A model generated the notes under the pieces. The model worked only from the letters and a program-made list of their open reading frames with translations. It made no database searches and was not told where the DNA came from. Both the position numbers and the translations under genes were made by a program. Positions 1,724-13,235 of a stretch of 22,431 bases of DNA are shown piece by piece; within the stretch, counting starts at the first letter, position 1; each line of letters opens with the position of its first letter. This stretch comes from a virus: positions 1 through 22,431 of IMG/VR virus record IMGVR_UViG_3300046714_000012. One strand, written 5' to 3'.

Positions 1724-1984
1724 GTGCGGGCCTCCATCGTCCTTTTCGTGCTTGGTGAGGCGTTGACGCTCGGCGGGGTCGCCCTGTGGTCGATCCCGCT
1801 GGCACTGATTCTCGCCGGCATCCAGTGCGTGTCGCTGGCGCTGCTGCGCGAGGGCGGTACCGAGAGCGCAGCGGCGGTGGTTCGGCGTCCGGCGGTGCCG
1901 AAGACTCACCGCCGTCCGTCGTGGCGTAAGCGGATCCGCTGGCCGTGGCCGCGTCGGCTTCGTATGTCGGGTAGTGCGGCGTGA
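1724..1984 (+). CDS. Small membrane protein of the packaging region
   Basis: Encodes 86 residues from GTG 1724, preceded by a good ribosome binding site (GAGGAGG). Residues about 3-41 are almost wholly hydrophobic and can form two closely spaced membrane helices with a short turn near a Trp-Ser-Ile-Pro. The C-terminal half (about 55-86) is very rich in Arg, Lys and Trp and probably faces the cytoplasm. The stop codon overlaps the portal GTG start by 4 bp (GTGA), so translation is likely coupled. I do not recognise a named family. Small membrane proteins between terminase and portal occur in other actinophages, as far as I recall, and their role is unknown. Good start signal, overlap and codon bias support a real gene. 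Confidence 0.75.
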   Translation: MRASIVLFVLGEALTLGGVALWSIPLALILAGIQCVSLALLREGGTESAAAVVRRPAVPKTHRRPSWRKRIRWPWPRRLRMSGSAA

Positions 1985-3870
1985 CCCGGCTGTGGGATCG
2001 GCTACTCGGTCGAGGTGTGCTCACCTCGTTCCCGACGGACGACCTGGAATGGTCTGTTCTGGCGTCCACGTACGGAACGCCGGACGCTGAGCGGATCCTG
2101 CCGACGTTCGAGCAGTACACCGGGCTCGCCTATATGGGCAACTCGGTGCTGTTCGCCGTCATCGGCCGGCGGCTGAACCTGTTCTCGGACGCAACGTTCA
2201 AGTTCCGGTCCCTGTCCGACAAGCACCTGTTCGGCTCACCCGAGTTGGCGAAGCTGGAAACGCCGTGGCCTAACGGCTCGACCGGTGAACTGTTGGCCCG
2301 CATGGAGCAGGACGTCTCTCTGGCGGGTAACGCCTACATCCGGGATGCTGGCGACCGTCTTGAGCGACTACGTCCCGACTGGGTGACGATCGTTTCCCAT
2401 GTGACATCGGATCCACTGGGCCGCAAGGTCCGGGAAGTCCTCGGCTACTGGTATCAGCCTGTTGGCGACCCGGAGCGCGGCGACGAGTACTACACCGTTG
2501 ACGAGGTCGCGCACTGGTCGCCGATCCCGGATCCGTTGGCGAACTTCCGCGGCATGTCGTGGATGACCCCGGTTATCCGGGAGATCAACGCCGACTTCGC
2601 GATGACGGCGCACCGGGATGCGTTCTTCCGTAACGCGGCAACCCCGAACACCGTGATCCGGTACACGAACCGACTCAAGCCGGAGACGCTCGACCGGATC
2701 CGGGCCAGTGTTGCCGCCCGCCATGCCGGGTCGGAGAATGCGTTCGGGACGATGATCCTCGACGAGGGTGCCGATCTGACCGTGGTCGGTGACCGGATGC
2801 AAGGCTCGGCGTTCGTCGAGATCCAAGCAGTCGGTGAGACGCGGATCGCGAACGCCGCTGGCGTGCCCGGGATCGTGGTCGGCTTGCGTGAAGGTCGGCA
2901 GACGGGCGCACCAGGCGAGTACGCGGACGCGATGCGTGGCTTCGCGGACGCGACGATGCGCCCCAACTGGCGTACCGCATGCGCTGCGCTAGCAAAGCTA
3001 GTAAAGGTCTCAGCCGGCGCGCAACTCTGGTACGACACGACGGACATTTCGGCGCTGCGGCAGGGTGAAAAGGACCAGGCCGACACAATGTCGACCCAGG
3101 CCAGCACCGCCAACACACTGATGATGGCCGGTTACGAGCCGGACACGATCATGCCCGCGATCTACGCCGGTGACCTGACCCTGTTGAAGCACACCGGCAA
3201 CATGTCGGTGCAGATGCAGCCAGCGGACGGCAGTCCACCACCGGGTACGCCTGGTGCGCCGGGCAAGCCGAAAGGCGCGCCGCGGCCAGCGTCAGGAGCG
3301 GGCGGTTCACTCGGCGCGCTGTCGACGCTCGGTGGTGGAAGTCGTGCAGACTCGGCGGACGTCCCGACCGGTGCGATGGTCGCACTAGTCCCCACCGAGG
3401 CGGATGCGCAGCGGCTCGCGGTTCCTGACGGCGAGCTAGCCGAGGATCTGCACGTGACGTTGCTGTTCCTCGGCGAGGCGTCAAGTCTCGACGCGGCCGA
3501 TGAGACGGCAGTCATTGACGCCGTTCGTCAAGCGGCGGCGGACATGGACGCGTTCACTGCCGACGGGTTCTCGGTGTCGCTGTTCAACCCGACGGCTGCC
3601 GACAAGTCGCCGTGCATCGTCCTCGGCTTGTCCGGCGACGATCTCGGCGAAGCCCACGATGATATTGAGCACGCCGTCACGGGTGCGCTCGAGTCGACCG
3701 GGAATCTACTGATTCCGCAGAAGAAGCCGTGGCACGCACACCTGACCCTGGTCTATTCCGATGACGATTCGTTGGTTGGGACGTTGAAGGATCGGACCGG
3801 TCCGGTCACGTTCGACCGGATCCGCTGCGCGTTCGGCGGCCGGATCACCGATATCCCTCTCGGGGGCTGA
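1981..3870 (+). CDS. Portal protein with C-terminal 2H phosphoesterase (LigT-like) domain
   Basis: Encodes 629 residues from GTG 1981. Residues about 1-410 form an HK97-type portal, the dodecameric DNA channel and head-tail joint. Recognisable segments are LAYMGNSVLFAVIGRR (about 49-64), the SLAGNAYI motif (about 113-120), HRDAFFRNAATPN (about 211-223) and the clip/stem region near PGIVVGLREG (about 296-305). Residues about 415-460 are a Pro/Gly/Ser/Ala-rich linker. From about 464 to 629 there is a second domain with the two hallmarks of the 2H phosphoesterase superfamily: H491-V-T493 within DLHVTLLFLG, and H587-L-T589 within WHAHLTLVYS, about 95 residues apart. This family includes RNA 2',3'-cyclic phosphodiesterases, LigT and the phage anti-CBASS enzyme Acb1. 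Both catalytic pairs are intact, so it is probably active, but its substrate cannot be read from sequence. Ordinary portals lack this domain. No stop or frameshift separates the parts. Confidence 0.93.
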   Translation: MTRLWDRLLGRGVLTSFPTDDLEWSVLASTYGTPDAERILPTFEQYTGLAYMGNSVLFAVIGRRLNLFSDATFKFRSLSDKHLFGSPELAKLETPWPNGSTGELLARMEQDVSLAGNAYIRDAGDRLERLRPDWVTIVSHVTSDPLGRKVREVLGYWYQPVGDPERGDEYYTVDEVAHWSPIPDPLANFRGMSWMTPVIREINADFAMTAHRDAFFRNAATPNTVIRYTNRLKPETLDRIRASVAARHAGSENAFGTMILDEGADLTVVGDRMQGSAFVEIQAVGETRIANAAGVPGIVVGLREGRQTGAPGEYADAMRGFADATMRPNWRTACAALAKLVKVSAGAQLWYDTTDISALRQGEKDQADTMSTQASTANTLMMAGYEPDTIMPAIYAGDLTLLKHTGNMSVQMQPADGSPPPGTPGAPGKPKGAPRPASGAGGSLGALSTLGGGSRADSADVPTGAMVALVPTEADAQRLAVPDGELAEDLHVTLLFLGEASSLDAADETAVIDAVRQAAADMDAFTADGFSVSLFNPTAADKSPCIVLGLSGDDLGEAHDDIEHAVTGALESTGNLLIPQKKPWHAHLTLVYSDDDSLVGTLKDRTGPVTFDRIRCAFGGRITDIPLGG

Positions 3871-3871
3871 C

Positions 3872-4114
3872 GTGGTTGAGAAGTCGCCACAAGGGGTCAA
3901 GTCCGCCGAGCAGCTTCGCCTGTACTGGACGCGGGATCCGAAGGGATTAGCCAAGTGGGTTGACGCGCCGCACAAGTGGACCGCGCTTTACCACCATTTG
4001 GTGAAGTTTATGAATCCCGACGAGGCGAAACGAACCGCCGCGCAGTGGTTCCACGAGACGCTCGGCTACTGGCCAGGCGACCAGAAGGGTTCTAACCCGG
4101 TCGGCCCGGGCTAG
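3872..4114 (+). CDS. Small conserved phage protein of unknown function
   Basis: Encodes 80 residues from GTG 3872, two bases after the portal stop, with a G-run just upstream as a possible ribosome binding site. The sequence starts EKSPQGVKSAEQLRLYWTRDPKG and has a central helical region (about 28-62) containing WTALYHHLVKFM and AKRTAAQWFHETLGYWPG. Proteins beginning with a 'P-Q-G-V-x-S-A-E-Q-L-R-x-Y-W' pattern and ending near a Gly-Tyr-Trp-Pro occur beside the portal in other actinophages, as far as I recall, with no assigned function. No membrane segment or catalytic motif is visible. Position between portal and protease suggests a role in head assembly, but that is inference. Confidence 0.75.
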   Translation: MVEKSPQGVKSAEQLRLYWTRDPKGLAKWVDAPHKWTALYHHLVKFMNPDEAKRTAAQWFHETLGYWPGDQKGSNPVGPG

Positions 4115-4163
4115 CCAGCCACACCTACACCGCTGATCCATGTCGACCCGAAAGGGGTGCGGC

Positions 4164-4850
4164 GTGGACAACGACGCCGACCGCATGTTCACCGAATCCC
4201 TTCACCCGCGTGTGCCCGCCGGTAAGCACGGCGGCGGTGAGTTCGGTAAGGCTGGCAACAAGAAGGCGCCGGCGCCGAAGTCGACGGGTTCGCCTGTGAA
4301 GGCCATGCCCAAGAAGGCACCGAGCCCGCCCAAAGGCACTCTCGCCTACGACCCGAAGACCGGTCGTGGCCCTGGCTATGGGGTTAAGGGCGGCGATCCG
4401 CAGGTGAAGAAGCTACAGGCCGCCCTCAACGCGCTTGGTCTGCGTGACATTCACGGCCACAAGCTGCAGGACGACGGGATGCTCGGCCCGCTGACAACCC
4501 AGTCGATCAAAGCAGCGCAGCGCCGTCTCGGCCTCAAGGCCGACGGCCAGGTGACGCCGGAACTGATGAAGCAGCTTCTCGCCGCGAAGTCCCTTCCGGC
4601 GAAACGGAACGTCGAAGCCGATGACGGCGGCAGGGCGGCGGGTGACGAGATGCAACCGGACACCTACGGCGCTGCGCAGGCGGCACAGCCAGCCGGGGTC
4701 GCACTTTCGGATCCGATTCCGACTCAGACGGCGATGGTCGATGAGGACTGCGAAGCGGAACTGATGCGAATCCTCGCGGATCTGCCCGATGACGAAATCG
4801 CATACCTCGGTGAGTTGGCCGAGCAGGCTCAGATGGACGGTGGCTACTGA
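4164..4850 (+). CDS. Head-region protein with peptidoglycan-binding fold
   Basis: Encodes 228 residues from GTG 4164, chosen because an AAAGGGG ribosome binding site lies just upstream; an in-frame ATG at 4140 would place that site inside the gene. N-terminal residues 13-27 carry HPRVPAGKHGGGEFG, a Gly-rich basic motif seen in phage head proteins. A Pro/Lys/Ala-rich linker follows. Residues about 76-139 match a PG_binding_1 domain: a three-helix pattern with VKKLQAALNALGL, the Asp-Gly-x-x-Gly-Pro-x-T turn (DDGMLGPLTTQSI), then IKAAQRRLGLKADGQVTPE. The C-terminal 60 residues are acidic and end in a helix. PG_binding_1 domains normally bind cell-wall peptide or glycan. Its placement between portal and protease, with stop and start sharing a base with the protease (TGATG), suggests a virion or head-assembly role. 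No lytic catalytic domain is present. Confidence 0.8.
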   Translation: MDNDADRMFTESLHPRVPAGKHGGGEFGKAGNKKAPAPKSTGSPVKAMPKKAPSPPKGTLAYDPKTGRGPGYGVKGGDPQVKKLQAALNALGLRDIHGHKLQDDGMLGPLTTQSIKAAQRRLGLKADGQVTPELMKQLLAAKSLPAKRNVEADDGGRAAGDEMQPDTYGAAQAAQPAGVALSDPIPTQTAMVDEDCEAELMRILADLPDDEIAYLGELAEQAQMDGGY

Positions 4851-5917
4851 TGTCGCGGTTCAACGAACTCGCCGCGCGGCTCGCCGCGAAAGGCGCTCAC
4901 GACCCAGGTGCCCTGGCGGCATACATCGGCCGCAAGAAGTACGGCCGTGCCGGGATGGCTGCCCTCGCGGCGAAGGGACGCGGGGTGCACCACGCCGAGA
5001 AGAACCTCATGAAGGACGGCGAGAAGCGGTCCGAGTTCCTCGGCGTCCGCGCGTTCGACTTCCGCTCGTACACGATCGAGGACTGCACAGTCCGGGACGA
5101 CGGCGACGGCCGAACGGTTGAGGCATACGCCGCGGCGTTCAACATCCCGGCCGAGATCCGGGACCAGGACGGCCACTACAACGAGGTCATCTCGCCCGGA
5201 TCGTTCGACAAGACGATCGCCGAGAACGGGACTCGTGTCGGCGTCTTCTACAACCACGCCAGGTCGATCTACGGGACGCCAGACGGTGCGCTATCGGTGC
5301 CGATCGGTGTTCCGGTGGAAGCGCCGCGGCCGGACAACCACGGTGTCATGACCGTGACTCGCTACCTGAATAACCCGCTGGCTGACTCGGTGCTTGACGC
5401 GATCAAGCAGCGGGCGATCACCGCCCAGTCGTTCAGTGGCCGGTTCATCAAGTCGACGCGCACGCGGGCTACGGATCGTGGCGCGTTGCCGACGATCGCC
5501 CGGTCTGAGGTGGCGCTACGCGAGTACGGTCCGACCCCGTTCCCGGCCTACCAGCAGGCGCACGTGGTCGGCACCAGATCAACCGAGATGTGGATGAGCG
5601 ACCTGCTGCGGATGGATCCGCAGGAGCGGGCGGAACTGTTCCGCGAGATGGTCGCCCTCGCCACACCGCTTGAGACCCCGCGGGCCGAACCGGTCCGCGA
5701 AGTCATCGTCGTCACGCCGTCCATTGCGGTGCGAACGGACGAGGCAGTAGAAGAACCACCCGCTCCGGCCACTCCCGACGTGGAGCCGGCCCGCAGCGAC
5801 AACGAAGCCACATCCGACCCGGATGCCGGCGCCGATGAGCCGCACACGCACTCCATTCGGCAAGCAGACATCAAGCGACGCATTCGCGTTGCCATGCTTA
5901 TGGAAGGAGTGCGCTGA
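4850..5917 (+). CDS. HK97-family prohead protease (S78/U35 type)
   Basis: Encodes 355 residues from ATG 4850, overlapping the previous stop by one base. The protease core spans residues about 63-245: an opening strand EFLGVRAFDF, VEAYAAAFNIP (about 90-100), NEVISPGSFDKT (about 111-122), catalytic His136 in FYNHARSIYGTP, and catalytic Ser194 in ITAQSFSGRF, with an acidic residue in RSEVALREYGPTPFPAY (about 218-234). This enzyme trims the capsid delta domain during head maturation. The first 50 residues are an extra basic helical extension containing DPGALAAYIGRKKYG, a segment found in other actinophage head proteins. Residues about 280-340 are Pro/Glu/Asp-rich and probably disordered, and could serve as scaffold. 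It sits just before the capsid gene, as expected. Confidence 0.92.
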   Translation: MSRFNELAARLAAKGAHDPGALAAYIGRKKYGRAGMAALAAKGRGVHHAEKNLMKDGEKRSEFLGVRAFDFRSYTIEDCTVRDDGDGRTVEAYAAAFNIPAEIRDQDGHYNEVISPGSFDKTIAENGTRVGVFYNHARSIYGTPDGALSVPIGVPVEAPRPDNHGVMTVTRYLNNPLADSVLDAIKQRAITAQSFSGRFIKSTRTRATDRGALPTIARSEVALREYGPTPFPAYQQAHVVGTRSTEMWMSDLLRMDPQERAELFREMVALATPLETPRAEPVREVIVVTPSIAVRTDEAVEEPPAPATPDVEPARSDNEATSDPDAGADEPHTHSIRQADIKRRIRVAMLMEGVR

Positions 5918-5918
5918 C

Positions 5919-7382
5919 ATGCGTACCCTGCAGGAAATCAATGCTCGGATGGAGGCGATCCGCCACGAGCTGGCCGGCATCGCTGAGCTTCCGGAGCCCG
6001 AAGGCGACGACGCCGCCCGGGCGCAGACCATCCAGGACCGTTCGGACCTGACCGACGAACTGCTCGCCGAGCACGACGAACTCAAGGCCGAGAGGCAGCC
6101 GCTGGCCGACCGCCAGGAGCGCCTCGACGCCGTACGGGCGACCGCTACGTCGGGTGCGAACTCGGAGCGGGGATCGTTCCAGGCTCCGAACGTCATCATC
6201 CAGCGGGACGCGTTCTCCAACCTCGACCACGTCCGCGACGGCCTCGTGCCACCGGACCAGCTTCGGTCGCGGGCTCTCGAAGCGATCGAGAAGGCGCCGA
6301 GTTGGATGTCCGATGCTGGCCGCGAGCGGGCGACGCAACTCGTGGAGAACCCGGACGGCACCGACCGGCAGGCGCCGCTGATCGCGCGGCACATGCTGAT
6401 GACCGGCTCGCCGCAGTACTACCAGGAGTTCGTGGAGTACGCCCGCTCGCAGGGTGTCCTCGTCGGCCCGCAGATGCGTGCCGCGATGTCCACAACTGGG
6501 GCAAATGGTGGGTTTTTGGTGCCTTTCACCCTTGATCCAACCATCATCCTTACGAATGCCGGTGTCGCCGACCCGATCCGGTCGATCGCGACGATCAAGA
6601 CGATCGCCACGACCACCTGGGAAGGCGTCACGTCGGCCGGTGTCACCGCTGAGTGGACCGGTGAGTCGTCGTCGGCTGAGTGGGCCGATGCCACGCCGAC
6701 GTTCGGCCAGCCGAGCATCACGCCGAAGAAGGCCGACGCGTGGGTCCAGGGTTCGTACGAAATCCTGGCCGACTCCGGCTTCGCCTCCGAACTGGGCCGG
6801 CTGCTCGCCGACGCGAAGGCACGCCTCGAGGCCGCCGCGTTCGCCACCGGCAACACTGGTGCGACGCAGCCGCGAGGCATCGTCGCCGCCGTCAACGCGG
6901 TCACCGCGTCGATCGTCACGTCGCTGACCGTCTCGGCGTTCGCCAAGGGCGACGTGTACAACGTCTCCGGCGCGCTGCGGCCCCGCGACTCGGCGGCGGC
7001 GTCCTGGATCGCGAACAAGAACGTGTACAACCTGATCCGGCAGTTCGACACGGCCGGCGGTTCAAGTTTTTGGGCCAATTTGGGGATGAAGACCCCATCG
7101 GAATTGCTCGACGCGCCCGTCTACGAGTGCTCGTCGATGACGTCGGCGATCACCACCGGCGCCGCGATCCTGCTGGCCGGCAACTTTGCCGAGTACTACG
7201 TCGTCGACCGGGTCGGCATGTCGGTGCTGTACGAACCGATGGTCCGCGGCGTGTCCTCGGGACGCCCCACCGGTCAGGCCGGCTGGGCGGCGTTTTGGAG
7301 GGTTGGAGCGGATTGCGTAGATCCTGCCGCTTTCAAGGTTTTGCATTTGGAGACCACCGCAACTGCGGTTGCTCTGGCATAA
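5919..7382 (+). CDS. Major capsid protein, HK97 fold
   Basis: Encodes 487 residues. I chose ATG 5919, which follows a GGAAGGAG ribosome binding site; the frame stays open further upstream inside the protease gene. Residues 1-75 are a charged heptad-like helix (delta domain, a built-in scaffold), followed by a linker region to about 190. The HK97 shell domain starts near residue 195 with NGGFLVPF and runs to the end. It includes TTWEGVTSAGVTAEWTGESS, the SYEILADS spine-helix region, the AAFATGN loop with QPRGIV, and a C-terminal WAAFWRVGADCVDPAAFKVLHLE. The N-terminal part before the shell is about 190 residues, longer than HK97's removed 102-residue delta domain. Short stretches near 6496-6560, 7063-7100 and 7290-7382 use AT-richer codons than the rest (see findings). 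Confidence 0.95.
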   Translation: MRTLQEINARMEAIRHELAGIAELPEPEGDDAARAQTIQDRSDLTDELLAEHDELKAERQPLADRQERLDAVRATATSGANSERGSFQAPNVIIQRDAFSNLDHVRDGLVPPDQLRSRALEAIEKAPSWMSDAGRERATQLVENPDGTDRQAPLIARHMLMTGSPQYYQEFVEYARSQGVLVGPQMRAAMSTTGANGGFLVPFTLDPTIILTNAGVADPIRSIATIKTIATTTWEGVTSAGVTAEWTGESSSAEWADATPTFGQPSITPKKADAWVQGSYEILADSGFASELGRLLADAKARLEAAAFATGNTGATQPRGIVAAVNAVTASIVTSLTVSAFAKGDVYNVSGALRPRDSAAASWIANKNVYNLIRQFDTAGGSSFWANLGMKTPSELLDAPVYECSSMTSAITTGAAILLAGNFAEYYVVDRVGMSVLYEPMVRGVSSGRPTGQAGWAAFWRVGADCVDPAAFKVLHLETTATAVALA

Positions 7383-7424: not shown

Positions 7425-8261
7425 GTGGAAACCTCTACGCCCCCAGTTGCGGGATGCACAGAACCCGATTGCCAACGGCCTGTCCGTAGCCTCGGCCTCT
7501 GTGAGAAGCACTACCGTGCGGCTCGACGAGTCGCAGCGACACCAGATCGGGCATGCAGAACCTGCGGCAAAGAGATTCCTGCATCCAACTCGGGTCGCCG
7601 TCGCGAGTACTGCGATGACACCTGTCGCCGGCCGAAACTGCGAGTTACGGCAGAGCAGGAAAGGCAATGCTCGGATGCCTCCTGCACTCGGGTAGCAAGG
7701 GTGCGTGGCTACTGTCTGCCCTGCTATCACAAACGCAAAGCGGACGGCGAGTTCGGCGGCCAGATCTGTGCGAAGGACTCGTGTGAACGCCTCGTCTACG
7801 GACGTGGCCTTTGCCACCTCCACCTCTGGCGGGCCTACGAGTACGGAGAATTGGAACGGCCAAGGTGTTCGGTTGAAGGATGCTCCAAGGTGCGCCGCTC
7901 GCGAGGGCTCTGCAACCGGCACCTGATGCGCGTGCGCGTTCACGGAGTGCCGGGCGAGGCCGAAGCGCGCCACCGTCCCAGCGGCTCTGGACATCTCGGT
8001 CGGAGCGGCTACGTCGAACTTCAGGTCGATGGCCGGAAGATCGGCCAACACCGGCATGTGATGGAAGAACACCTCGGCCGATACCTGTGGCGGTGGGAAA
8101 GCGTCCACCACAAAAACGGGCACCGCGCCGACAACCGGCTCGCCAACCTTGAACTCTGGGTGAGGGGCCAGCCCGCTGGCCAACGGCTCGACGACGTGCT
8201 TCGTCACTACGTGTCCCACTACCGGGCGGAGATCGAAGCGATCATCGCCGAACCCACCTAA
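7425..8261 (+). CDS. HNH homing endonuclease with zinc-knuckle array
   Basis: Encodes 278 residues from GTG 7425. Residues 1-170 hold five cysteine-rich modules. Four share one layout, C-x4-C-x9-C-x2-H/C: C11/C16/C26/H29, C82/C87/C97/C100, C115/C120/C130/H133 and C148/C153/C163/H166. The other is a C-x2-C plus C-x3-C pair (C44/C47, C63/C67). Residues about 194-248 form an HNH_3 nuclease domain: SGYVELQVDGR, QHRHVMEEHLGR, then VHHKNGHRADNRLANLELW with the catalytic His pair 228-229 and the paired Asn residues. The fingers probably read DNA and the HNH domain cuts. It sits between the capsid gene and the hairpin that normally ends a capsid transcript, as expected for a free-standing homing gene. 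The G-run upstream is very close to the start, so initiation may be weak. Confidence 0.88.
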   Translation: METSTPPVAGCTEPDCQRPVRSLGLCEKHYRAARRVAATPDRACRTCGKEIPASNSGRRREYCDDTCRRPKLRVTAEQERQCSDASCTRVARVRGYCLPCYHKRKADGEFGGQICAKDSCERLVYGRGLCHLHLWRAYEYGELERPRCSVEGCSKVRRSRGLCNRHLMRVRVHGVPGEAEARHRPSGSGHLGRSGYVELQVDGRKIGQHRHVMEEHLGRYLWRWESVHHKNGHRADNRLANLELWVRGQPAGQRLDDVLRHYVSHYRAEIEAIIAEPT

Positions 8262-8342: not shown

Positions 8343-9074
8343 ATGGCAAATCCAGAAGACAAGGTGGTTGTCGGGTATTGCAGTCCCGGCACCGTCGACA
8401 CCGCTTTCCACGAGTCGTTGCTGAACTTGATCGCCGCCGATGCTGTGACCACTCACCGGATCATTGGTGGTGGAGGCCGGATCTCAGTTCAGGCGTCGGC
8501 GAACATCTCCGGCGCCCGTAACGACATCGTCCGGCAGTTCCTCGACCACTCCGATGCCGAGTGGCTGTGGATGCTCGACACGGACATGACGTTCCCGGCG
8601 GAAACGCTCGAAGCATTGCTAGAGAATGCCGATCCGGACCGCGCGCCGATCGTCGGTGCGCTGTGCTTCGGCCTGGATGACGGCTGGCTGTTCCCGACGC
8701 TGTATGACCTGCGTCCGCATGAAGAGTCGCCGGTGGTTCGCTACCGGGAGTGGCCGCCGAACGCCATGTTCCAGGTCGCGGCGACTGGTGCGGCGTGCAT
8801 GCTGATCCACCGGACGGTGCTGGCGAAGATCCGCGACCAGGCGGGTGCTGAGTTCTCCGTCGCCTTCCCCTGGTATCAGGAACGCGAGCACGGGGTGATG
8901 AAGGTCGGCGAGGACGTCACCTTCTGTCTACGTGCCGGCCTGTGCGGTTTCCCGGTGTACGTGAACACCGGGGTCGCGATCGGGCACATCAAGTCGCACA
9001 CGTTGACGGTGGACGGCTATCTGGCGCAGCAGGCGTTCAAGGCCGGGATCGCGGAGTCGGAGGAGCAGTCATGA
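8343..9074 (+). CDS. Glycosyltransferase, GT-A (family 2-like)
   Basis: Encodes 243 residues from ATG 8343 with ribosome binding site GGGAGAA nine bases upstream. GT-A features are visible: an N-terminal strand VVVGYCSPG, a helix ISGARNDIVRQFLDHSDA (about 55-72), the strand EWLWMLDTDMTFP with the metal-binding D79-T-D81, a mid-region ending in AATGAACMLIHRTVL (about 146-160), and a later acidic KVGEDVTFCLRAGLCGFPVYV (about 187-207) typical of the acceptor and base region. It would transfer a sugar from a nucleotide donor; donor and acceptor are unknown. It opens an overlapping cassette that also holds a methyltransferase and a sugar epimerase, which points to virion or surface glycosylation. 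The stop overlaps the next gene by 4 bp. Confidence 0.82.
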   Translation: MANPEDKVVVGYCSPGTVDTAFHESLLNLIAADAVTTHRIIGGGGRISVQASANISGARNDIVRQFLDHSDAEWLWMLDTDMTFPAETLEALLENADPDRAPIVGALCFGLDDGWLFPTLYDLRPHEESPVVRYREWPPNAMFQVAATGAACMLIHRTVLAKIRDQAGAEFSVAFPWYQEREHGVMKVGEDVTFCLRAGLCGFPVYVNTGVAIGHIKSHTLTVDGYLAQQAFKAGIAESEEQS

Positions 9075-9358
9075 AGGCGAACATGAGCGGTTTCGTCAAC
9101 GTCAACGGCCGCACGGTGTGGGTCGATGAGGGCGAGGACTACGACGCCGGCCACGAGTTCGTGACCGCACGTCCGGACGTGTTCGGCGCGCCTGGACCTG
9201 TCCGTGCTGTCGACGCAGGCGAGATTGAGGAGGTTGATCCGACGATCTCGACGGACCCGGACGAGTTCCTCGACGAGCAGGCAGCCGGCCTGACGACGCA
9301 GAACGCTGCACCGATCATCCGCAAGCCGCGGCAGACCCGGGCGCGTAAGAGTGGGTGA
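9071..9358 (+). CDS. Small acidic protein inside the glycosylation cassette
   Basis: Encodes 95 residues from ATG 9071, which overlaps the previous stop (ATGA). A longer upstream reading in this frame is only a shadow of the glycosyltransferase. Residues 6-32 look like a small beta unit, SGFVNVNGRTVWVDEGEDYDAGHEF. Then follow an acidic stretch (about 50-75, many Asp and Glu) and a basic C-terminus (KPRQTRARKSG). Small proteins with a similar start are found in phage head-tail regions, as far as I recall, but I cannot name a family. It could be a head component or a partner or acceptor for the neighbouring transferases; both ideas are inference. Confidence 0.75.
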   Translation: MKANMSGFVNVNGRTVWVDEGEDYDAGHEFVTARPDVFGAPGPVRAVDAGEIEEVDPTISTDPDEFLDEQAAGLTTQNAAPIIRKPRQTRARKSG

Positions 9359-10043
9359 CCTTCTGGTCATCGTCCCGTCCCGGGGTCGTCCAGCTTCGGC
9401 AAAGGGACTGGTGGACAACTTCCGGCAGACCTGCACCGCCGACACGCGTCTCCTGTTCGCGGTTGACGTCGATGACCCGACCCACAGGGAGTACGCAGCC
9501 ATAGTCGATGACGTACCCAACTGCGGTGCCATATTCGGAATGTCGCGGAACATGGTCGAGGCCCTGAACGGCGCTGCGAACCTGGCACTTGCGGCACATC
9601 CCGATACCTTCGCGATCGGGTTCATGGGCGACGACCACCTTCCCCGAACGTACGGCTGGGACAGCCTCTACCTGGCGGCTCTTCGCGACCTTGGGACTGG
9701 GATCGTCTACGGCGATGACCTGTTGCAGCGGCAGAACCTGCCGACGCAGTGTGCGATGACCGCCGACATTGTCACGGCTCTCGGCTACATGGCACCACCC
9801 GAGCTGCATCACCTGTACGTCGACAATGCCTGGCTGGTGTGGGGTAACTCGCTCGGGGTCCTGCGTTATCTGCCGCAGGTGGTGATCGAGCACAGGCACC
9901 CGATGGCCGGGAAAGCCGAGTGGGACGAGGGCCACACCCGGGTCAACTCGGATGAGATGAACCACCACGACAAGCAGGCATTCGACGGCTACTCCCGCAG
10001 CCGGCTACGCGAAGACCTCGACAAGATCGCGGCCCTGAGATGA
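9351..10043 (+). CDS. Glycosyltransferase-like protein (second of cassette)
   Basis: Encodes 230 residues from GTG 9351, overlapping the previous gene by 8 bp. The N-terminus DLLVIVPSRGRPASAKGLVD is the classic first strand and loop of a GT-A glycosyltransferase. FAVDVDDPTHREY (about 36-48) and the metal-site candidate FMGDDHLPRTYGWD (about 91-104) follow, with a second acidic GIVYGDDLLQRQ (about 117-128). The later IEHRHPMAGKAEWDEGHTR is typical of phage proteins of this type, in which a conserved H-x-H-P follows the acceptor region. It probably acts on the same glycan as its neighbours. Starts and stops overlap on both sides, so all these genes are likely translated together. No signal peptide or membrane segment. 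Confidence 0.75.
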   Translation: MGDLLVIVPSRGRPASAKGLVDNFRQTCTADTRLLFAVDVDDPTHREYAAIVDDVPNCGAIFGMSRNMVEALNGAANLALAAHPDTFAIGFMGDDHLPRTYGWDSLYLAALRDLGTGIVYGDDLLQRQNLPTQCAMTADIVTALGYMAPPELHHLYVDNAWLVWGNSLGVLRYLPQVVIEHRHPMAGKAEWDEGHTRVNSDEMNHHDKQAFDGYSRSRLREDLDKIAALR

Positions 10044-10744
10044 AGGTCATCTCGTTCAGCCTGTTCGGGGTCAACGGGCCACCCGCACCCCTGTACACCG
10101 CCGGCGCGGTGGCGAACGCCTTGATCTGCGCTGACTTGTACTCGGACTTCGTGTGCCGGTTCTACGTCGGCGACAGCGTCACTGCTGAGGTTCGCCGGAT
10201 GTTGTTCGGGTTCCCGAACGTGCAGATCGTGCCGATGGTTAACCGCCCGGAGGACTGGTCGGCGCTCATGTGGCGGTTCTATTCGCTGCTCGACGCCGAG
10301 GTTGACGTTCACCTGTTCCGGGACGTGGATTCACGCCCAGATGAGCGTGAGCGGGCAGCGGTCGAAGAGTGGCTGAGGTCTGGCCTTGACTTCCATGTGA
10401 TGCGGGACCATCCGGAACACTGCATGCCGATCATGGCTGGGATGTGGGGCTGCACTGCGGTTGGTGCGCGGAAGATTGCACCGCTGTTGCCTGCGGGTGG
10501 CGGTAAGTCACGCTTCACGGATCAGCTGTGGTTGCGTGATGCCGTCTATCCGGGCGCCGCTGGTTCGATGCTGGTCCACGATGACATGCGCTGGCTGGAT
10601 GGCGAGGACCCGCAGCCGTTCCCGGTTGCACGGCAGCCACTTGGCGTGCTTCCTGGGTGGCGGTTCGTGGGTCAGGCGTTCGATGAGGACGACATGCCGC
10701 GGCTTCCCGCTGACGCTCTACGCATATCGGCGGGCGTCGGATGA
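10040..10744 (+). CDS. Putative glycosyltransferase-like protein (third of cassette)
   Basis: Encodes 234 residues from ATG 10040, overlapping the previous stop by 4 bp. The fold looks like a nucleotide-sugar transferase: N-terminal KVISFSLFG strand, FYVGDSVTAEVRRML (about 41-55), MWRFYSLLD then VDVHLFRDVDSRPDERE with a D-x-D candidate (D95-V-D97, about 88-104), HVMRDHPEHCMPIMAGMWGCTAVG (two halves around 119-142), and TDQLWLRDAVYP. This resembles family-8 or family-32-like transferases, where a D-x-D is followed by an Arg-rich helix and a loop that limits what is exposed to solvent. The exact family is not certain. Context with a methyltransferase and epimerase supports sugar transfer. Confidence 0.68.
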   Translation: MKVISFSLFGVNGPPAPLYTAGAVANALICADLYSDFVCRFYVGDSVTAEVRRMLFGFPNVQIVPMVNRPEDWSALMWRFYSLLDAEVDVHLFRDVDSRPDERERAAVEEWLRSGLDFHVMRDHPEHCMPIMAGMWGCTAVGARKIAPLLPAGGGKSRFTDQLWLRDAVYPGAAGSMLVHDDMRWLDGEDPQPFPVARQPLGVLPGWRFVGQAFDEDDMPRLPADALRISAGVG

Positions 10745-11298
10745 GCCGGGAGCGGCTCCGGCTGCGCTACTCGGACGCCGAGCTTGCTGAGATCTATGCC
10801 CAGCCGCACGACCACCGACAATGGCGTGACCACCATCTGCGGGTCGCGGCGACGATCGCTGTCGGCCAGTGGATGACTCCACAAGGCATCCCCGCAGCAG
10901 CGGATCTGTCCTGCGGCAATGGGGCGATCCTCGACGCGATCGACGCGAAGACGAAGGTCTACGGCGACTTCGCGCCCGGATACGAGGTCACCGGTCCGAT
11001 CGAGCAGACGATACGGACACTGCCGCTGGTCGACATGCTGGTCTGCTCGGAAACGCTCGAGCACCTTGACAACCCAGACCTTGTGTTGCGGTTGGCGCGT
11101 GAGCGTGCGCAGATGCTGCTGCTGTCCACGCCGGTTGGCGCATGGGCGGATCCGAACCCGCAGCACTATTGGGCATGGTCGCGGCGCGATGTCGAAGCGA
11201 TGCTGACGCAGGCCAAATGGCGGCCGATCGTCTACGTGGAATCGGACCTCCGACCGGCTGGCGCGGACTACAGCTTCGGGATCTGGGGGTGCCTGTGA
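10741..11298 (+). CDS. SAM-dependent methyltransferase-like protein
   Basis: Encodes 185 residues from ATG 10741 (ATGA overlap with the previous stop). Residues 52-64 (AAADLSCGNGAIL) form the glycine-rich SAM-binding motif I of class I methyltransferases. VYGDFAPG (about 73-80) is in the place of motif II, and DMLVCSETLEHLDNPDLVLRLA (about 98-119, given here only in outline) is motif IV plus the helix typical of small-molecule and sugar O-methyltransferases. A C-terminal YWAWSRRDVEAML and a final beta strand complete a shortened fold. No DNA methyltransferase catalytic motif (DPPY/NPPY or PCQ) is present. Its place between glycosyltransferases and an epimerase suggests it methylates a sugar or its acceptor. 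Substrate unknown. Confidence 0.75.
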   Translation: MSRERLRLRYSDAELAEIYAQPHDHRQWRDHHLRVAATIAVGQWMTPQGIPAAADLSCGNGAILDAIDAKTKVYGDFAPGYEVTGPIEQTIRTLPLVDMLVCSETLEHLDNPDLVLRLARERAQMLLLSTPVGAWADPNPQHYWAWSRRDVEAMLTQAKWRPIVYVESDLRPAGADYSFGIWGCL

Positions 11299-12092
11299 AG
11301 GCACTCGTCACCGGATCCGCCGGATTCGTCGGTCGACACATGCTCGCCGAACTCGACGACTACGGGTATGAGGTCCACGGGTGCGACCTGATCGACGGTG
11401 ACGACGTCCTCGACCTCGTCCGCCGCCCAGCCGACCGGTACGACCTGGTAATCCACGCCGCCGCGCGCAGTCCGCACAGGGCGGCGATCGACGGTGACCC
11501 GGCTATGCATGCCTACAACATGATGCTCGACTCGGCGATGTTCGACTGGGCCGTGCGGACACGTCAGAAGCGGCTCGTGTATCTGTCGTCCTGTGCTGCG
11601 GCGGACGGACCGGTCGACGACTACGCCCGAACGAAACTCGCCGGAGAATGGCTCGCTGGGACTGCCCGTGCCGCGGGCTTGCCCGTCACGGTGGTACGTC
11701 CCTACTCCGGGTACGGGTCCGACCAGTCACCGGACTTTCCGTTTCGGGCGATGGCCGAACGCGCGAGACGCCGTGACGACCCGTTCGACATCTGGGGCGA
11801 CGGGACGCAGGTCCGCGACTGGATCCACATCGACGATCTGGTCCGCGCAACCCTCGCCGTTGCCGAGTCGGACACCGGCGAAACCGTTCACCTGTGCTCC
11901 GGCATCGGCACCTCGGTACGCCAGCTCGCCGAACTGTTCTGCACCGCTGAGGGCTACCAGCCTGAGTTCCGGCTACGCACCGACAAGCCGGCTGGCGTGC
12001 GCGTCCGGATCGGTGACCCGACCGTCATGCACCAGTACTACACGCCGCAGATCGACATCGAAACCGGCGTGAAGCTCGCCCTGTCTGACTGA
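11295..12092 (+). CDS. NAD-dependent sugar epimerase/dehydratase (extended SDR)
   Basis: Encodes 265 residues from GTG 11295 (GTGA overlap with the previous stop); a longer upstream reading is a shadow. It has the full extended short-chain dehydrogenase signature: TGSAGFVG with Gly7/10/13 binding NAD(P), IHAAA (about 53-57), the active-site serine in YLSSC (about 96-100), the catalytic Y110-x3-K114 in DDYARTKLAGEW, VVRPYSGYG (about 133-141), and the substrate-binding RDWIHIDDLVRA (about 174-185). Such enzymes make NDP-sugars (epimerases, 4,6-dehydratases, reductases). The exact sugar cannot be named from sequence. It ends the cassette and is followed by a terminator. At 265 residues it is somewhat short, with a compact C-terminal substrate domain. 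Confidence 0.9.
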   Translation: MKALVTGSAGFVGRHMLAELDDYGYEVHGCDLIDGDDVLDLVRRPADRYDLVIHAAARSPHRAAIDGDPAMHAYNMMLDSAMFDWAVRTRQKRLVYLSSCAAADGPVDDYARTKLAGEWLAGTARAAGLPVTVVRPYSGYGSDQSPDFPFRAMAERARRRDDPFDIWGDGTQVRDWIHIDDLVRATLAVAESDTGETVHLCSGIGTSVRQLAELFCTAEGYQPEFRLRTDKPAGVRVRIGDPTVMHQYYTPQIDIETGVKLALSD

Positions 12093-12656: not shown

Positions 12657-13235
12657 CTATCTTACGGCGCGTGTCCTTCTCCCAAGCTTCGATGAGCCCG
12701 CGCAACACATTGCATCGCTGGCACGCTGGCACGCTGGCACGAGGTTGGCGATGTCGTTGTTGCGCGGGTTGTTGTCGAGATGATCCACGATCAGATCACC
12801 GGCCTTATAGGCACCACGTCCAGTCCGAACGATCCATTCAAGACTCGTTCCGCACCAGTGGCAGGCGTGGGGTCCTTCCCCGATCGACTCATAGAGAACG
12901 TAGCGGTGGACGAGAACTTTTCCGGTCGCGCCAGCGAGTGGGTGGCCGATATAGGTACGTGCCATACGCTTGCCGGTGTCGGCCACGTTACCGGCGCAAG
13001 TCTGTGAGCAATACTTCTGCACTCGACCGTTGCGGGTGTTGTCGGGCCATGCGAGGTATTCCTTCTCGCACCTGAAGCAAATTCGCTCGACCTTTCCCTT
13101 GTTAGGGTTCCGCGCCCGCCAGTCACGTGCGTACGCCGCACGGTCAGCGCGGCAGAAGTCGCAGCGACATCCGCGCCCGTAGTTCGCGCTGACGCTCAGT
13201 TCGGGGCTGTGAGTCATGAGAAATTCTAGAATCAC
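12657..13235 (-). CDS. HNH endonuclease with frameshifted C-terminus (probably inactive)
   Basis: The only minus-strand gene; 192 residues from GTG 13235, or 186 from ATG 13217. No clear ribosome binding site is seen for either. Zinc-type cysteines occur early (C23/C25/C28, C53/C56, C76/C80). The HNH core follows: KVLVHRYVLYESIG (about 106-119), HACHWCGTSLEW (about 123-134), then LIVDHLDNNPRNNDIANLVPACQ (about 148-170, stated in outline) with the D151-H152, N160 and N164 residues. After ACQR the sequence becomes unrelated. An 8-bp unit, GTGCCAGC on the coding strand, occurs three times in a row here. With two copies the reading would continue as RCNVLRGLIEAWEKDTRR, exactly the expected C-x2-C-N ending, and stop at 12622-12624. 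The gene has thus probably lost its second zinc cysteine pair. Confidence 0.82.
   Translation of the reverse strand: MILEFLMTHSPELSVSANYGRGCRCDFCRADRAAYARDWRARNPNKGKVERICFRCEKEYLAWPDNTRNGRVQKYCSQTCAGNVADTGKRMARTYIGHPLAGATGKVLVHRYVLYESIGEGPHACHWCGTSLEWIVRTGRGAYKAGDLIVDHLDNNPRNNDIANLVPACQRASDAMCCAGSSKLGRRTRAVR
12717..12740. repeat. Three perfect 8-bp tandem copies inside the HNH gene
   Basis: Three contiguous copies of GCTGGCAC on the + strand. They lie in the codons for the final HNH cysteines. Two copies give the conserved reading and three shift the frame by +8 (net -1). Slipped-strand replication would readily add or remove a copy. Confidence 0.9.

What the first reader, a model, noticed from the sequence alone, without database searches (positions are those of the whole stretch)
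3343..3867. Portal fused to an intact 2H phosphoesterase domain
Seen: residues about 464-629 of the portal carry two H-x-T motifs (H491-V-T493, H587-L-T589) separated by about 95 residues, after a Pro/Gly linker. Known: 2H enzymes include LigT/CPDase RNA phosphoesterases, and phage Acb1, a 2H enzyme that cleaves CBASS cyclic nucleotides. Inference: a dozen copies of such an enzyme at the portal would be delivered or assembled with the head. It could attack cyclic-nucleotide defence signals, repair or cleave RNA, or serve assembly only. I recall LigT-like domains joined to other actinophage head proteins, but cannot check.
Basis: partly seen in the sequence, partly recalled or inferred. Interest (0 to 1): 0.75.

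Follow-up and report, generated by a model that had tools for sequence, protein, structure and literature searches.

The report
Phage portal carrying a phosphodiesterase enzyme
A phage of actinobacteria has welded an intact RNA/nucleotide-cutting enzyme of the 2H family onto the end of its DNA-gate (portal) protein, probably as head cargo for use against the host; such 2H–portal fusions were already described in 2017 and 2022, so this is a good new example rather than a new kind of thing.

Summary
ORF 1981-3870 (629 aa) is an HK97-type portal with an in-frame C-terminal 2H phosphoesterase domain (residues ~460-629) after a Pro/Gly/Ala linker. AlphaFold2 gives it a 2H fold (pLDDT 95.8; closest solved structures LigT/CPDase/Usb1, Z 14.5-15.5; Acb1 Z 10.9). 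H491, T493 and H587 are invariant in 133 distinct relatives, so an active enzyme is likely. About 400 actinophage records carry the domain; in those inspected it lies among head genes, fused to MuF or head protease or alone. Portal fusion is rare (this window and one contig). Among its closest portal relatives only this one has 2H, but at the same C-terminus others carry an ADP-ribosyltransferase or other domains: the C-terminus behaves like a cargo slot. This favours a head-borne enzyme over an assembly-only part. None of 14 complete 2H-bearing phages has an ATP-dependent RNA ligase, which argues against RNA repair. The second motif has Tyr where LigT has its phosphate-binding Arg130, as in T4 Acb1, but it is not an Acb1 by Pfam. 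Substrate and injection are unproven. 2H–portal/MuF fusions and the injected-effector idea are published (PMC5512222, PMC9503650), so novelty is low.

The parts
1981..3870 (+). Portal-2H fusion gene, 629 aa
   Evidence: ORF; PF04860 1.3e-33, PF13563 7.7e-6; phrog_12 and phrog_2659
1981..3225 (+). HK97-type portal core (residues 1-415); most relatives stop shortly after this point
3226..3357 (+). Pro/Gly/Ala-rich linker (about residues 416-459)
   Evidence: Translation; atypical codon-position GC from its composition
3358..3867 (+). 2H phosphoesterase domain (residues 460-629)
   Evidence: AlphaFold2 pLDDT 95.8; LigT/CPDase/Usb1/Acb1 matches
3451..3459 (+). First catalytic motif H491-V-T493
   Evidence: H and T invariant in 133 distinct relatives; also invariant in the 16-sequence set chosen by tblastn rather than by motif
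3739..3747 (+). Second catalytic motif H587-L-T589
   Evidence: H587 invariant in 133; position 589 is T 89, C 36, A 4, S 3, R 1
3754..3756 (+). Tyr592, at the position of LigT Arg130 and of a Tyr in T4 Acb1
   Evidence: Tyr in 128 of 133; motifs HITLLR in E. coli ThpR and HITLSY in T4 57B
3872..4114 (+). 80-aa helical protein of the phrog_6439 type, a recurrent partner of 2H domains (same ORF or adjacent gene elsewhere)
   Evidence: phrog_6439 3.1e-16; architectures; model pLDDT 73.6
4140..4850 (+). Peptidoglycan-binding-domain protein in the head cassette
   Evidence: PF01471 9e-12
4850..5917 (+). Prohead serine protease (S78); candidate to cut the linker (inference)
   Evidence: PF04586 8e-14
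5823..7382 (+). Major capsid protein (HK97 type), ORF as listed; true start probably later
   Evidence: PF05065 1.2e-41; Gordonia/Mycobacterium/Rhodococcus phage capsids

Best explanation
The domain is a catalytically competent 2H phosphodiesterase carried as head cargo on the C-terminus of the portal of an actinobacteriophage. About a dozen copies per virion would sit at the portal vertex. I think it most likely acts on the host side as an early effector: it is released or passed into the cell with the DNA (perhaps after the S78 protease cuts the linker) and breaks a nucleotide immune signal or an RNA by metal-free 2H chemistry. Shown: in-frame fusion, predicted 2H fold, invariant catalytic residues, head-gene context across the family, and other domains at the same portal position in relatives. 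Inferred: enzymatic activity, position inside the head (portal C-termini face the capsid interior in known portals, from general knowledge), delivery, substrate.
For: 2H fold by AlphaFold2 (pLDDT 95.8); PDB matches to E. coli LigT, TT0787, CPDase, Usb1, Acb1. H491/T493/H587 invariant in 133 distinct relatives, and in 16 chosen without the motif. In annotated phages examined the domain lies in the head region, mostly between portal and major capsid genes, fused to MuF or protease or alone. In 96 ORFs most 2H domains are in fusions with head proteins, and many solo ones neighbour MuF or protease-type genes. A second portal-2H fusion, L083, is in a different portal and lies apart from this one in the 2H tree, though one origin is not ruled out. 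At the same C-terminus of related portals other domains occur: ADP-ribosyltransferase in L225 (PF03496 8.5e-12), C-terminal domain of a head-morphogenesis family in L197 (phrog_7625 4.7e-27), phrog_6439 domain in L162, weak GNAT in L223 (E 0.07). In L232 a gene joining 2H to an ART-like part (my reading of the translation) follows the portal gene. No ATP-dependent RNA ligase in 14 complete 2H phages, T4 control positive. Same proposal in PMC5512222 and PMC9503650.
Against: No assay, no virion proteomics, host unknown, and the record is a 22-kb fragment. A tethered portal domain cannot enter the cell without cleavage, and no cleavage site was identified. Second-motif Thr is Cys or Ala in many MuF-fused relatives, so some members may be altered. 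Conservation of the first motif in the viral contigs set is partly by selection, since the scan pattern contained it.
Confidence: 0.55

Rival explanations
1. Late enzyme that is not injected: the portal tether only localises it. It degrades defence signals or RNA in the producing cell during assembly, when capsid proteins accumulate.
For: It is in the structural gene cluster and physically joined to the portal; no cleavage site was identified; standalone 2H genes also sit in this cluster.
Against: The same slot and gene position hold domains typical of injected cargo, such as Alt-like ADP-ribosyltransferases; the polyvalent-protein literature treats these as injected (PMC9503650).
Confidence: 0.22
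2. RNA-end or tRNA repair enzyme (LigT/CPDase-like 2',3'-cyclic phosphodiesterase).
For: Highest Z-scores are to LigT/CPDase/Usb1; first motif LHVTLLFLGE resembles E. coli ThpR LHLTLAFLGE.
Against: None of 14 complete 2H phages has a PF09414 or PF09511 RNA ligase while T4 has both; LigT Arg130, which holds the product phosphate (PMC5283653), is Tyr here; no tRNA in the window; PMC5512222 never saw this 2H type with RNA ligases.
Confidence: 0.13
3. Assembly-only or structural domain without catalysis.
For: It is joined to structural proteins and has a recurrent helical partner (phrog_6439).
Against: Both His and the first Thr are invariant in 133 relatives; nearly all related portals lack it and do without.
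Confidence: 0.08

Closest known systems
2H domains fused to MuF or portal in phage polyvalent proteins (Iyer et al. 2017 PMC5512222; 2022 PMC9503650)
   Same: Same domain superfamily, same fusion to portal or MuF, same head context; the papers propose action on host nucleotide signals or RNA, and the 2022 one packaging and injection.
   Different: I did not find this phage named in the passages read; shown here in addition are exchange of domains at one portal clade's C-terminus, the phrog_6439 partner and the Tyr at the LigT Arg130 position.
E. coli LigT/ThpR RNA 2',3'-cyclic phosphodiesterase
   Same: Fold (Z 14.7) and first motif.
   Different: Arg130 replaced by Tyr; fused to portal; no RNA ligase partners found.
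Phage anti-CBASS nuclease Acb1 (T4 57B)
   Same: 2H fold (Z 10.9 to 7t26), HxT tetrad, Tyr five residues after the second His.
   Different: No Pfam Acb1 match for the window domain; different first-motif context; T4 Acb1 is a standalone protein.
Streptomyces, Gordonia and Mycobacterium phage 'RNA ligase' genes and MuF-protease fusions
   Same: Direct relatives of the domain, about 24-42% identical, in the head operon.
   Different: Fused to MuF or protease, or free, not to an HK97-type portal; many MuF-fused ones have Cys for the second-motif Thr.

Membership tests
2H phosphoesterase superfamily | Two H-x-[ST] motifs about 70-100 residues apart | tested here: met
   H491-V-T493, H587-L-T589; invariant His in 133 relatives
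2H phosphoesterase superfamily | Duplicated 2H fold | tested here: met
   AlphaFold2 model, LigT/CPDase/Usb1 Z 14.5-15.5
2H phosphoesterase superfamily | Metal-independent phosphodiesterase activity | not testable with these tools
   Needs an enzyme assay
LigT/ThpR 2',3'-cyclic phosphodiesterase | Arg after second motif (E. coli Arg130) that binds the product phosphate | tested here: not met
   Tyr592; Tyr in 128 of 133 relatives
Acb1 anti-CBASS nuclease | Match to Pfam Acb1 model PF23474 | tested here: not met
   No match for the window; 13 of 14 complete 2H phages no match, one below cut-off, T4 control 3.3e-61. A few relatives match below the cut-off
Acb1 anti-CBASS nuclease | Cleavage of 3'3'-cyclic oligonucleotides | not testable with these tools
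   Needs an assay
Head-packaged polyvalent/effector fusions | Effector domain fused to a head protein (MuF, portal, protease) | tested here: met
Head-packaged polyvalent/effector fusions | Presence in the virion and delivery to the cell | not testable with these tools
   Needs virion proteomics and an injection assay
HK97-type phage portal | Match to PF04860 and position between terminase and prohead protease/capsid | tested here: met
   gene order

The most novel reading that the evidence does not exclude
The C-terminus of this actinophage portal clade is a plug-in slot for injected enzymes (2H phosphodiesterase, ADP-ribosyltransferase and others), and the 2H inserted here is a distinct virion-delivered nuclease, LigT-like in motif 1 and Acb1-like in motif 2, that destroys a nucleotide defence signal at the moment of DNA entry.
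Probability: 0.3. Interest if true: 0.65.

Novelty: new member of a known kind. Interest (0 to 1): 0.38.

Why it matters
If these portal-borne 2H enzymes are active and delivered, phages bring anti-defence enzymes in with the particle, before any phage gene is expressed, with a fixed stoichiometry set by the portal ring. The exchange of domains at one portal C-terminus gives a simple natural experiment for testing that, and a short list of candidate virion effectors in actinophages. The general concept is already published.

Tried and rejected
A single-protein search for the domain in viral contigs found nothing; an alignment was needed. phmmer of the domain against PDB sequences gave nothing meaningful. 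A short PR..GKF-type motif before several portal-tail domains looked like a possible head-targeting signal, but it is not enriched in 2H ORFs (3 of 143), so I dropped it as a family feature. The idea of a separately translated 2H was considered and not supported. Whether the two portal fusions arose independently is not settled: they lie apart in the 2H tree, but starred branches do not exclude one origin. No literature was found in the held library on virion proteomics of 2H-bearing actinophages or on the phage BCSR5 phosphodiesterase. The structural second look lists LigT/CPDase above Acb1, but Acb1 is shorter, so Z does not decide the substrate. A first guess at the T4 57B position was wrong and was corrected.

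Full report
WHAT IS THERE. The window is a 22,431-base virus record. Its gene order is terminase (210-1709), portal-2H (1981-3870), an 80-aa phrog_6439-type protein (3872-4114), a peptidoglycan-binding-domain protein (4140-4850), prohead protease S78 (4850-5917) and HK97 major capsid protein (ORF 5823-7382). Best portal relatives in phage records are from Rhodococcus, Gordonia and Mycobacterium phages, about 40% identical and covering only residues 1-416; terminase and capsid also point to actinophages. The host is not known.

THE OBSERVATION. The portal ORF has PF04860 (1.3e-33) and PF13563 (residues 487-598; 5.5e-7 for the domain alone) in one frame, and PHROG 2659 'RNA ligase' (1.3e-26 for the domain). 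By shuffling, the motif pair alone has an 8.6% chance, so the case rests on profiles, fold and conservation.

FOLD. An AlphaFold2 model from 50 window and viral-contig sequences has mean pLDDT 95.8 and pTM 0.90. Foldseek and VIA-align give the 2H family: TT0787 Z 15.5, drCPDase 15.3, plant CPDase 15.1, Usb1 14.9, E. coli LigT 14.7, AKAP18 13.0, rotavirus VP3 13.0, Acb1 10.9 with 129 residues aligned. In viral models the top matches are Gordonia and Mycobacterium phage 'RNA ligase' and structural proteins.

CONSERVATION. Over 133 distinct domains H491, T493 and H587 never change; position 589 is T 89, C 36, A 4, S 3, R 1, with most Cys in MuF-fused forms. The viral-contig scan pattern contained the first motif, so first-motif invariance there is partly built in; in the 16-sequence set chosen by tblastn without the motif both His and the first Thr are also invariant, and the second His was never selected for.

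ACTIVE-SITE DETAIL. E. coli ThpR reads LHLTLAFLGE and HITLLR; T4 57B (Acb1) reads IHSTICYSRV and HITLSY; the window reads LHVTLLFLGE and HLTLVY (and the sequence). LigT Arg130 coordinates the nucleophilic water and the product phosphate (PMC5283653). Here the position is Tyr, as in T4 Acb1, in 128 of 133 relatives. The first motif is LigT-like and the second Acb1-like. This neither proves nor excludes either substrate. Acb1 membership by Pfam is not met.

FAMILY CONTEXT. tblastn finds the domain in 403 phage records at E 0.01, all from phages of actinobacterial genera. In the annotated records examined it lies mostly in the head region: inside MuF-protease fusions (Streptomyces), inside head maturation protease (Gordonia Zitch), as a free gene after the portal (Pupper, Sebata, E3) or after the protease (Wizard). 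Stormageddon has it two genes after the capsid gene. In 143 ORFs the counts are MuF 52, head859-type (a protease-like head protein) 33, other long ORFs 20, protease 19, solo 17, portal 2. The bacterial-genome hits carry titles of Actinomycetota (one, Rhodococcus sp. IEGM 1409, is given an odd lineage). Label changes on the 2H tree number 35 over 6 groups, so the domain has moved among head proteins repeatedly.

PORTAL C-TERMINUS AS A SLOT. Of 85 portal-profile ORFs from the 80 relatives plus earlier loci only the window carries 2H. At the same place others carry an ADP-ribosyltransferase (L225, PF03496 8.5e-12), the C-terminal domain of a head-morphogenesis family (L197, phrog_7625), a phrog_6439 domain (L162), a weak GNAT (L223, E 0.07) and an unnamed domain (L227). 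A second set of 80 relatives adds a few more tails. L083 is a second portal-2H fusion in another portal, with an unannotated N-terminal part of about 530 aa. L232 has a free gene after the portal that joins 2H to an ART-like region, by my reading of the translation.

RNA REPAIR TEST. PF09414 and PF09511 RNA ligases are absent from 14 complete 2H phages and found in T4. The annotation 'RNA ligase' on these 2H genes is a carry-over of the old family name '2'-5' RNA ligase'.

PRIOR ART. PMC5512222 (2017) states that 2H domains are fused to MuF or portal domains and suggests RNase action or degradation of defence nucleotides. PMC9503650 (2022) repeats this and proposes head packaging and injection. 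The present case is a new, well-supported member. Additions are the domain exchange at one portal clade, the phrog_6439 association and the Tyr/Arg difference.

VERDICT. Real and known in kind; an active enzyme is likely; delivery and substrate are unproven. Interest 0.38.

Noticed in passing
3872-4114: The 80-aa phrog_6439-type helical domain recurs next to or fused with 2H domains across actinophage head operons. Its function is unknown; the model is only moderately confident (pLDDT 73.6).
   Followed up: partly
8343-12092: A glycosyltransferase-like protein, several unannotated proteins and an NAD-dependent epimerase (PF01370 8.5e-33) sit between the capsid and tail genes; possibly virion or DNA glycosylation.
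   Followed up: no
7425-8261 (+) and 12657-13235 (-): Two HNH_3-type endonuclease genes inside the structural region.
   Followed up: no
L225, L197, L223, L227 and L162 portals: C-terminal tails of related portals carry an ADP-ribosyltransferase, a head-morphogenesis C-terminal domain, a weak GNAT, an unnamed domain and a phrog_6439 domain; several are preceded by a PRxxxGKF-like motif.
   Followed up: partly
L083 3202-4800: A roughly 530-aa N-terminal extension on the second portal-2H fusion has no Pfam or PHROG match.
   Followed up: no
L151 953-1411: In T4 the Acb1 gene 57B lies next to ipI, an internal head protein gene, and is labelled 'RNA ligase' in the record.
   Followed up: no
L006, L010, L011, L020: MuF-fused Streptomyces 2H domains have Cys or Ala for the second-motif Thr, a possible change of activity.
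   Followed up: partly
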